Origin: Salvelinus alpinus
Lineage: Eukaryota; Chordata; Actinopteri; Salmoniformes; Salmonidae
Assembly: GCF_045679555.1 (NCBI RefSeq)
Contig: NC_092091.1
Coordinates: 18,536,072-18,600,071 of the forward strand
Length of the DNA stretch: 64,000 bases
Direction of reading: 5' to 3'
Translations under genes and position numbers: made by a program
Shown here: positions 61,119 through 63,505 of the stretch, in pieces
Layout of the letters: each line of letters starts with the position of its first letter
Position numbering within the stretch: the first letter of the stretch is position 1
The notes under the pieces: model-generated
The model's database searches: none
Told to the model about the DNA's origin: nothing
The model's input: only the letters and a program-made list of their open reading frames with translations

Positions 61119-63505
61119 CTACAGTGGGAAGTAGAGAGAGGGATGGGGGAGGGAGTGAGAGAAAGAAATGAAGAGTAATAAGTTACAGTGCGATGCTATG
61201 TAAAGACTTACAATGAGAAAGAGTGTGAGAGCGCAATACAAAGAGAGAGAATTTAAAAAAGAGAGAGACAGAAGAGAGTAGAACTCGGGCCGCATCTCAA
61301 TACTCCGTAGTGGCATCCTTTCTATGTGTCTTTGCTTTCATCAACACTGAATGGGTGGAAGCAAGGCAAATTGCTTTCACTGACCTTACTATTTATAATT
61401 ATTTACAGTGTAGATGAAGGAAAGGAAACAAGCTTCTGACTATTGAGAGACAGCCCAAGAAAGGCAAATCAAGAGCCTGGAGCAGTGTCTGACTGGGAGT
61501 CAGTCAGAACACATGAACACCATAGAGAGATAAAAGGAGTGAATTAAGACATCATTTACAACCGACAAGACATTTGAGGGAGAGAGAGAGAGCATCAATC
61601 AGAATATTAGAGCCCCATGATTAGAACATGAGAGAAGCAGGGTAGAGCAGGGTAGCATGCTGTTTCTACCAGCCAGGTCACCCGTGATACAAGTCAGTAT
61701 TCAACATCCATCCATGTCTGAGGACATCGGGAGATGTGGAAGCCAGCCACTAGGGGCAACAGTGAGCACTGTTACCTTCAAGTAGGGTTCAGTTTTGCTA
61801 CGGCGTTGTGGACGAGGATGGGCGTAAGCATCTGCCTTTGGTGCCAAAGGTTGCATGTTCGAATCCATCCAGTTGTTTTTTTATTTTTGTTTTAAGCCTA
61901 TCCCAAACCTTAACGCTTACCTTAACCATTCGGAGTTAATACCTAACCTTAAAAATTCAGAGTTAATGCCTAAACTTAACCTTAAACACTTTGAAATTTG
62001 ACATTTGGAACAACTTCAAATGTTTGACATTTGAGAAACATGGATGAACGTCTAATTTTGACGTGAGACTGTGAGAGCTAGTTGGTTTCTACAGACACAC
62101 CACTTACCAGGAGCAGAGACCGGCAGAGAGAGACACAGCGGTAACACACATAGACTGGCAGACAGGCCGTAGACTCAGGGAGGATAGTACTCAGAACTCA
62201 GTCAAGTGGCTGGGAACATGACTATTGTATTACTGGTGTAACTAGCTAGATAACTAAATCTAAATCTTGAGAACTCACATTTTAAACTACACTCTTACAA
62301 AAAAAGTGCTATCTAGAACTTAAAAGGGTTCTTCGACTGTCCCCATAGGAGAATCCTTTTTGGTTCCAAGTAGAACCCTTTCCACACAGGGGTCTACATG
62401 GAACCCAAAGGGGTTCTCCTTGGAAACAAAAAGCGTTCTCCTATGGAGACAGCCAAAGAACCCTTTTGGAACCCTTTTTTCTAAGTGTAACGTTAGGCAC
62501 AATTTCTAAGGGCTTGTATGTATTTCTAGGTGGACACACATCACAAATACTACTGTACACTACTGCAGACTCAGTGGAGGCTGCTGAGAAGAGAACGGTT
62601 CATAATAACGTCCAGAACGGAGCAAATGGAAAGGGATCAAATACCTGGAAATAATGTGTTTGATGTATTTGATACCATTCCACTAATTCTGCTCAGATCG
62701 TTACCACGAGCCTGTTCTCCCCAATTAAGGTGCCACCAACCACCTGTGTGCAGACTACAAGCTTTGTTACAAGTGTAACAATGGTGTAAACCGTGTATGT
62801 ACATGTACTAATATTTAGAGATATACTGTTCCTGTTATTGCCTCATTGGGGTAGTGACTCATCGTGACGTTACCTTTCTTGGAGAAAAACTCTCGGCTGT
62901 ACTTCCCGGCGGTGGCCACTTTGCGTGGAACCTTCCCCAATAGCTCCATGATCAGAGCGATGTGATCTGAACCCCGGCCACCACAGGCCACACCACCAAA
63001 GAACAGGCACGGCACAGCATTACATCACAAACATACACACACGCTGAAGGGATGGACGGACACTGCTGCCTGGAGACACCACACTGACTGACAGACAGAC
63101 TGACTGATGGGACAGTAAGTCTCTCAAGAAGTTAGTGGAGAGGACTATGCCTAAACTGGTTTGATAGTGTGTGTTAATTACATACAGTACTATTCCCTCT
63201 ATGTCCTTTCTATCTTTAACAACTGTTCACAACAATGGTGTATTGGAATGCCAGGCAATTTGCTGAAAAACCCCTTATTGCTTTTGGACTTCTTATATCA
63301 TTCCCATACCACTCTATTTGTATTCCTGTATGTCCATCTGACTGTCTGAGTCAGTGTGTGGGCTCAGGCGTCTGTGTGTCTCCGTCCCACCAGCACTTTC
63401 ACCCAGTGCTACCTCTTCGGTTGAAGAACTCCCGGGAATATTTTCCGGAGAGTGCAAAGTGCCGTGGAATAATGCCCAGCAGCTCAATGATGTGGGCTAT
63501 ATGGT
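60934..63505 (-). CDS. srpk2: srpk2-like SR protein kinase, 3' end (partial; two alternative penultimate exons)
   Basis: SRPKs phosphorylate RS domains of SR splicing factors, in the cytoplasm and nucleus. The window holds the C-lobe end of the kinase: exons 63413-63505 or 62874-62966 (apparent alternatives), then terminal exon 60934-61118 with stop TAG. The terminal exon reads [52 protein letters not shown] and NS. The words [12 protein letters not shown] and [10 protein letters not shown] point to SRPK2 rather than SRPK1 (GLFEVLVEKYEW) or SRPK3 (GLYEVLMEKYEW). The split Asp codon at the upstream exon border requires a preceding exon ending in phase 1, which lies beyond position 64000. It converges on adck2 tail to tail. 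Confidence 0.9.
61119..62284. other. srpk2 intron, no gene
   Basis: Intron between exon A and the terminal exon. It holds a GA-rich tract near the acceptor (61130-61280) and a run of ccttaacc/gagttaat words (61900-61985) like a degenerate dispersed repeat. Confidence 0.5.
62285..62490. repeat. Palindromic MITE rich in GGTTCT/AGAACC, copy 2
   Basis: Same inverted blocks as 40310: ctgtccccataggagaat and gttctcctatggagacag, with tagaaccctttcc inside. It lies in the srpk2 intron after exon A. Confidence 0.85.
62568..62752. repeat. Palindromic MITE (GTGGAGGCTGCTGAG type), copy 2
   Basis: Begins cagtggaggctgctgagaag and ends attaaggtgccaccaacca. The inner inverted pair aatggaaagggatcaaatac / gtatttgataccattcc forms the fold. 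It lies about 120 bp downstream of srpk2 exon A. Confidence 0.85.
62874..62966 (-). CDS. srpk2: srpk2 alternative penultimate exon A (SRPK1-like version)
   Basis: 93 nt, acceptor ggggttcag and donor AAGAAAG|gtaacg. With the upstream G it reads [20 protein letters not shown] then [12 protein letters not shown]. The version is closer to SRPK1 ([14 protein letters not shown]) than to SRPK2. It enters and leaves in phase 1, exactly like exon B 446 bp upstream. The 3' splice site has a poor, G-rich tract (tggtggccggggttcag), which suggests weak or regulated recognition. Confidence 0.88.
63413..63505 (-). CDS. srpk2: srpk2 alternative penultimate exon B (canonical SRPK2 version)
   Basis: 93 nt, acceptor tcctctgtag and donor CGAAGAG|gtagca. 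With the upstream G it reads [20 protein letters not shown] then [12 protein letters not shown], almost the same as mammalian SRPK2. It is preceded by an exceptional pyrimidine-rich tract (63510-63790 on the plus strand as purines). The Asp (split codon) and Glu match Asp564 and Glu571 of human SRPK1, acidic residues of the substrate-docking groove. Confidence 0.93.

What the first reader, a model, noticed from the sequence alone, without database searches (positions are those of the whole stretch)
62874..63505. Tandem, probably mutually exclusive exons in srpk2 that swap part of the kinase docking groove
Seen directly: two exons of exactly 93 nt, 446 bp apart, same phase at both ends, each with its own AG and GT. 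Their encoded segments align without gaps (19 of 30 whole-codon residues identical), yet most shared residues use different codons, so the duplication is old and both copies look constrained. Exon B reads like canonical SRPK2 ([15 protein letters not shown]) and exon A like SRPK1 ([15 protein letters not shown]). Known from the family: this segment contains the Asp and Glu matching human SRPK1 Asp564 and Glu571, which form the acidic docking groove for SR proteins. Both exons keep the Glu and share the split Asp codon, but nearby residues change from neutral to basic. Inference: alternative splicing may tune substrate docking of an enzyme that itself regulates splicing. Using both would stay in frame (186 nt), so exclusion cannot rely on nonsense-mediated decay.
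Basis: partly seen in the sequence, partly recalled or inferred. Interest (0 to 1): 0.9.

Follow-up and report, generated by a model that had tools for sequence, protein, structure and literature searches.

The report
Ancient twin exons in SRPK kinase genes
A fish gene for a kinase that controls RNA splicing carries two look-alike versions of one small exon, a pair shared with its sister gene and still found in sharks, birds and mammals, so animals may be able to retune part of the enzyme's substrate-binding groove by alternative splicing.

Summary
The two 93-nt exons are real: minus strand, exon B 63413-63505, exon A 62874-62966, 446 bp apart, same phase, 19 of 30 residues identical. The gene is srpk2; a second srpk2 copy in this 2.37-Gb genome keeps the same pair. 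Proteins of sharks, gar, teleosts, frogs, birds and mammals, mouse included, carry both exons in SRPK2, and SRPK1 has the same pair in the same order. All A-type segments form one clade and separate duplications in SRPK1 and SRPK2 are rejected. Solved SRPK1 has the A type and solved SRPK2 the B type, so exon A "reads like SRPK1" by common origin. Mutual exclusion is not shown: 132 of 136 listed protein models join B to A in frame, though clustering and ranking favour such models. Hatje 2017 lists a validated mutually exclusive cluster in human SRPK1; I could not confirm that it is this pair. Best reading: B is the srpk2 default and A a weakly spliced alternative giving a more basic surface beside unchanged groove acids.

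The parts
63413..63505 (-). Exon B, 93 nt, phase 1; SRPK2-type segment (D)[30 protein letters not shown](G)
   Evidence: nearest solved protein is SRPK2; second copy on C9 differs at 2 of 93 sites
62874..62966 (-). Exon A, 93 nt, phase 1; SRPK1-type segment (D)[30 protein letters not shown](G)
   Evidence: nearest solved protein is SRPK1; second copy on C9 differs at 5 of 93 sites
62967..63412 (-). Intron between exon B and exon A, 446 bp, GT-AG (637 bp in the C9 copy)
62971..62986 (-). Acceptor tract of exon A (-20 to -5), 7 of 16 pyrimidines, 9 G; the same counts in the C9 copy
63510..63525 (-). Acceptor tract of exon B (-20 to -5), 16 of 16 pyrimidines; the same in the C9 copy
60934..61118 (-). 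Coding part of the terminal exon, [12 protein letters not shown]...HPWLNS and stop

Best explanation
A functional tandem-duplicated exon pair of the SRPK family, made once before the SRPK1 and SRPK2 genes separated and kept in both. Shown: both exons have open frames and splice sites in both srpk2 copies of this genome; exon A has one origin with the A exon of SRPK1; every segment tabulated keeps the groove Glu, with the groove Asp before it. Inferred: in srpk2, exon B has the strong acceptor and is the default; exon A has a weak, probably regulated acceptor and, when used, supplies the segment (recalled as helix G plus the MAPK-type insert) that SRPK1 uses by default, giving SRPK2 an SRPK1-like, more basic rim beside an unchanged acidic groove. 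I favour exchange of B for A as the selected use, with joint B+A transcripts as a by-product or second product; exchange itself is not shown.
For: Pair intact in both srpk2 copies, exon A 88 of 93 sites against 1617 of 2139 in introns, Fisher p 2.5e-6. SRPK2 and SRPK1 proteins of many vertebrates carry both segments. All 43 A-type segments one clade, 98/94; A+B of SRPK1 as one clade rejected, p-AU 4.7e-5, of SRPK2 6e-4; the tree expected from one pre-split duplication is not rejected, p 0.26. Solved SRPK1 A-type, solved SRPK2 B-type. A keeps the 30-residue length in all 39 distinct A segments that fit the pattern, and the residues invariant in the other three groups are kept or nearly so in SRPK2 A, as expected of an exchange unit. 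Acceptor tracts: srpk2 B 16/16, A 7/16; srpk1a on C28 A 13/16, B 10/16. Hatje 2017 names an RNA-seq-validated exclusive cluster in SRPK1.
Against: No RNA data. 132 of 136 listed models join B and A; all 119 SRPK2-tailed ones contain B, so no A-only SRPK2 was seen. In the best tree the SRPK1 B segments group with A (96/90), not with SRPK2 B. Exon A differs more between copies than B and its dN/dS is only 0.045/0.099 on five differences. The same pair is decaying in one srpk1a copy. No special RNA fold was found before exon A.
Confidence: 0.58

Rival explanations
1. Exon A is an in-frame cassette added to B, not exchanged for it. The product has a 31-residue tandem repeat inside the kinase C-lobe with doubled groove acids and may be a weaker or differently docking form.
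For: 132 of 136 listed protein models have B joined to A, from sharks to mouse and including two trouts, P0020 and P0022. Frame (186 nt), intron length and GT-AG ends allow it. The weak acceptor of A and strong acceptor of B fit occasional addition.
Against: The database is clustered at 90% and shows one, probably longest, model per cluster; scores of the two copies add up, so such models rank first. Read support of the models was not visible. A has kept B's length and structural residues in register. Hatje's criteria exclude in-frame joining reads for the SRPK1 cluster, if it is this pair.
Confidence: 0.28
2. Exon A is a relic or noise exon, kept by chance and picked up by gene predictors through its likeness to B.
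For: One srpk1a copy shows such decay: its exon B has lost its acceptor and first codons to a TA repeat. Exon A of srpk2 has a poor acceptor tract and evolves faster than B: 32 distinct A and 6 distinct B segments in the SRPK2 proteins.
Against: Open and of equal length in SRPK2 from sharks to mammals; conserved above introns between the two copies here; E571 kept in 32 of 32 distinct SRPK2 A segments.
Confidence: 0.08
3. Exon A did not descend vertically in both genes: it arose beside B in SRPK1 and reached SRPK2 by exon transfer or conversion, or arose twice.
For: In the best tree SRPK1 B groups with all A segments (96/90).
Against: Two separate duplications are rejected (4.7e-5 and 6e-4). 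The vertical history (SRPK1 B + SRPK2 B + srpk3 together) is not rejected, p 0.26. Same order, phase and length in both genes. Mean identity B1-B2 21.8 and A1-A2 22.9 of 30 against A1-B1 17.6 and A2-B2 18.9. Only 30 columns, so many forks are open.
Confidence: 0.06

Closest known systems
Mutually exclusive exon cluster in human SRPK1 (Hatje et al. 2017, PMC5740500; sections 5 and 10 read)
   Same: Same gene family; listed among clusters of validated exclusive exons of the mammalian core set, absent in Glires. SRPK1 proteins here carry the same B-A pair.
   Different: The text gives no exon coordinates and I could not open the tables, so identity with this pair is likely but unconfirmed. SRPK2 is not named in the main text (only one SRPK mention). 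Mouse SRPK2 keeps its pair (P0074) while mouse is said to lack the SRPK1 cluster.
FYN and CACNA1 tandem exons shared out among paralogues (PMC9741552, section 12 read)
   Same: Tandem homologous exons older than gene duplications; paralogues keep both, or one or the other.
   Different: Exclusive use is shown there by transcripts and proteins, not here. SRPK is not mentioned in that main text.
U2AF1 exons Ab/3 (PMC5224494, abstract, outline and passages)
   Same: Twin exons in a splicing gene, one with less favourable splice signals.
   Different: There the branch point and tract mechanism is measured; here only tract composition was compared.
Predicted SRPK2 and SRPK1 isoforms in public databases, such as mouse SRPK2 isoform X5 (P0074)
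   Same: Contain both segments.
   Different: Automatic models with B and A joined and no described function.

Membership tests
Mutually exclusive homologous exon pair | Neighbouring internal exons of like length, phase and sequence, each with its own splice sites | tested here: met
   the same in the C9 copy
Mutually exclusive homologous exon pair | Transcripts contain one or the other, never both in frame | not testable with these tools
   No RNA reads available; 132 of 136 listed protein models contain both joined, with clustering and ranking bias
Mutually exclusive homologous exon pair | A known enforcing feature (frame shift, short intron, U2/U12 clash, RNA structure) | tested here: not met
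   Both together keep the frame, intron 446 bp, GT-AG ends; one fold of 151 nt before exon A, z 0.81. Long-range pairing and branch points were not tested
SRPK2 gene | Kinase exons and terminal exon of SRPK2 type | tested here: met
   tblastn with recalled human SRPK2 finds the other exons upstream; tail KPWSL...HPWLNS
SRPK docking groove | D548, D564, E571, K615 of SRPK1 (D581, D597, E604, K648 of SRPK2) | tested here: met
   For the two residues in this exon: D564 by the split codon, E571 in both window exons and in all 54 distinct vertebrate segments; residue list from PMC10878513 (passage). The other two lie in other exons and were not examined
Tandem exons shared out among paralogues (FYN-like) | Exon duplication older than the gene duplication, with different retention per paralogue | tested here: met
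   One genome: srpk2 x2 both, srpk1a x2 both (one B broken), srpk1b x2 A only, srpk3-type x5 B only; A of one origin. Vertical descent is inferred,

The most novel reading that the evidence does not exclude
The difference between the SRPK1 and SRPK2 docking segments is an exon-choice difference inherited from one ancestral gene that had both exons. SRPK1 fixed A as default, SRPK2 fixed B, and each kept the other as a spliced alternative, so vertebrates can turn SRPK2 into an SRPK1-like docker, and the reverse, by splicing. As the kinase controls splicing factors, this could close a feedback loop.
Probability: 0.35. Interest if true: 0.78.

Novelty: new member of a known kind. Interest (0 to 1): 0.56.

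Why it matters
SRPK1 and SRPK2 are usually treated as two enzymes with fixed docking surfaces (recalled). If each gene can also make the other's docking segment, work on substrate choice and on paralogue-selective inhibitors has to ask which exon is present. The family also makes an open question testable: how twin exons are shared out after gene duplication. One salmonid genome shows four outcomes side by side: both kept, A only, B only, and one twin decaying.

Tried and rejected
Exclusion enforced by nonsense-mediated decay, short intron or U12 clash: not supported by frame, intron length and GT-AG ends. RNA hairpin before exon A: one 151-nt fold, no support. Spliced retrocopy with a B|A junction in the genome as a fossil transcript: 0 matches with up to 2 mismatches. 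Search for A-only SRPK2 proteins: not informative, because the scores of the two copies add up and proteins with both rank first. Dating with invertebrates: only three rows without the vertebrate pair appeared (snail P0146, unnamed P0142 and P0145), each with a single B-like segment; lamprey, amphioxus and tunicates were not reached. Structure prediction of a B+A protein on alignment A1: not accepted. PMC12907903 (SNW1 and SRPK1, passages) concerns another, short transcript. PMC7093569 (tilapia, passages) reports srpk3 splicing and srpk2 expression changes in the cold without naming exons.

Full report
What is there. On the minus strand exon B (63413-63505) is followed after 446 bp by exon A (62874-62966) and then by the terminal exon (coding part 61118-60934). 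Both exons are 93 nt, begin after the first base of an Asp codon, end with the first base of a Gly codon, and have AG and GT sites. 19 of 30 residues match, 5 of them with the same codon. NG86 distances between A and B are dN 0.34 and dS 2.3. No other translated stretch of the window comes near exon B (next best 9 of 30).

The gene and its copy. The window is G000:C6:18536072-18600071 of a 2.37-Gb genome. Other kinase exons lie upstream on C6, and a gene with the same layout is on C9. Between the copies exon A matches at 88 of 93 sites, exon B at 91 of 93, the terminal exon at 175 of 186 and aligned intron at 1617 of 2139; exon A against intron gives Fisher p 2.5e-6, with sites taken as independent. 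Exon A has five differences, so its dN/dS (0.045/0.099) says little.

The family in one genome. The exon A peptide gave 16 matches at E up to 10; 15 look like SRPK exons and one, L026, like another kinase. Two srpk2 and two srpk1a-type genes have B then A. In the srpk1a copy on C17 exon B has lost its acceptor and first codons to a TA repeat and is out of frame. Two srpk1b-type genes have A only; tblastn found no B in their upstream introns of about 380 and 190 bp. Five srpk3-type genes have a B-like exon only, with no A found before the terminal exon. The labels 1a, 1b and 3 are mine, from similarity and recalled naming. Apart from the broken one, all are 93 nt in the same phase.

Outside this fish. 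Three protein searches passed 1037, 2408 and 2204 proteins and listed 120 each, 146 different clusters in all. Of the 136 from the first two, 117 SRPK2-tailed and 15 SRPK1-tailed proteins join B to A directly; the other four are P0001, P0003, P0050 and P0125, and a looser pattern finds a B segment in all 136. Of all 146, 138 fit a strict B-A pattern, 116 with SRPK2 and 22 with SRPK1 tails; left out are P0001, P0003, P0033, P0050, P0125, P0142, P0145 and P0146. SRPK2 owners include sharks and a ray (P0062, P0066, P0084), gar (P0034), bichir (P0124), frogs (P0115, P0122), birds, turtles, platypus (P0055) and mouse (P0074). SRPK1 owners include gar (P0089), medaka (P0128), a turtle (P0143), a marsupial (P0137), a bat (P0140) and a mole (P0139). 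No human name was among the representatives shown.

Origin. In a tree of 67 distinct 30-residue segments all 43 A-type rows form one clade (98/94). Holding SRPK1 A and B together costs 27.1 log units (p-AU 4.7e-5), SRPK2 A and B 27.3 (6e-4). Against the simplest story, the best tree puts SRPK1 B beside A (96/90) and not beside SRPK2 B; but holding SRPK1 B, SRPK2 B and srpk3 together costs only 5.4 units (p 0.26), SRPK1 B with SRPK2 B 7.6 (p 0.19). With 30 columns many forks are open. The snail and two unnamed sequences have a single B-like segment, nearest to SRPK2 B (25.3 of 30). So I infer a B-like single exon duplicated before SRPK1 and SRPK2 separated. That this separation belongs to the early vertebrate genome duplications is recalled.

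What the swap would change. Solved SRPK1 carries the A type and solved SRPK2 the B type. Two of the four groove residues lie here, D564 and E571 (PMC10878513, passage); an arginine of a bound peptide pairs with positions 564 and 571 (PMC6805999, passage, which prints 564 as E). E571 is kept in all 54 distinct vertebrate segments tabulated, and D564 by the pattern used. Differences lie around them: 568, 575, 579 (H or R/Q in B, K in A), 580-583 and 592-594. A is more basic: mean net charge 4.8 against 3.0 in SRPK2 and 4.4 against 2.8 in SRPK1. That this alters substrate choice is inference.

How the choice might be made. In srpk2, B has 16 of 16 pyrimidines before its acceptor and A 7 of 16 with nine G, in both copies. 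In the srpk1a copy with both exons intact the weaker tract is that of B (10 of 16 against 13 of 16). The presumed non-default exon has the poorer acceptor in these three gene copies, which is a pattern and not a test. Donors of B and A are of similar predicted U1 pairing in srpk2 (-6.3 and -6.5). No unusual RNA fold was seen.

Exclusive or joint. Frame, intron length and site type allow joint inclusion, and most listed models show it. Those models are predictions whose read support I could not see; the database shows one representative per 90% cluster and my searches rank two-copy models first. Hatje 2017 (sections 5 and 10 read) requires bridging reads and no in-frame joining read, and names SRPK1 among its clusters. 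I leave exclusion open, with exchange somewhat more likely than addition because A has kept B's length and structural residues in register.

Novelty. Twin exons shared out among paralogues are a known kind (FYN, CACNA1 genes; PMC9741552 section 12). Library searches on SRPK2 or SRPK1 with exclusive, tandem, homologous or duplicated exons, SRPK exon phrases, docking, and salmon returned listings in which I saw no title or abstract start describing this pair in SRPK2; only eleven or so papers were opened, most for passages. The library is open-access only, so absence from print is not claimed.

Noticed in passing
L016 about 975-1130 (G000:C17 near 46563290): Exon B of one srpk1a copy has lost its acceptor and first codons to a TA repeat and is out of frame, while the C28 copy is intact.
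   Followed up: partly
window about 55340-57660, + strand: Exons of an ABC1/UbiB-type (ADCK or COQ8-like) kinase gene, convergent with srpk2; Pfam PF03109 on 56764-57000. Gene extent by eye.
   Followed up: partly
window 63510-63636: Imperfect purine-rich (+ strand) repeat array directly upstream of the exon B acceptor, forming its very long pyrimidine tract.
   Followed up: no
C9 copy, intron between B and A (L012): 637 bp against 446 bp in the window, mostly one block present only in C9.
   Followed up: no
protein P0003 (Umbra pygmaea): Model with extra residues between B and A, apparently from an upstream acceptor; its letters resemble a read-through of the intron end seen here.
   Followed up: no
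window 50000-54700: Stretches that look like Tc1/mariner-type transposon copies, by eye.
   Followed up: no
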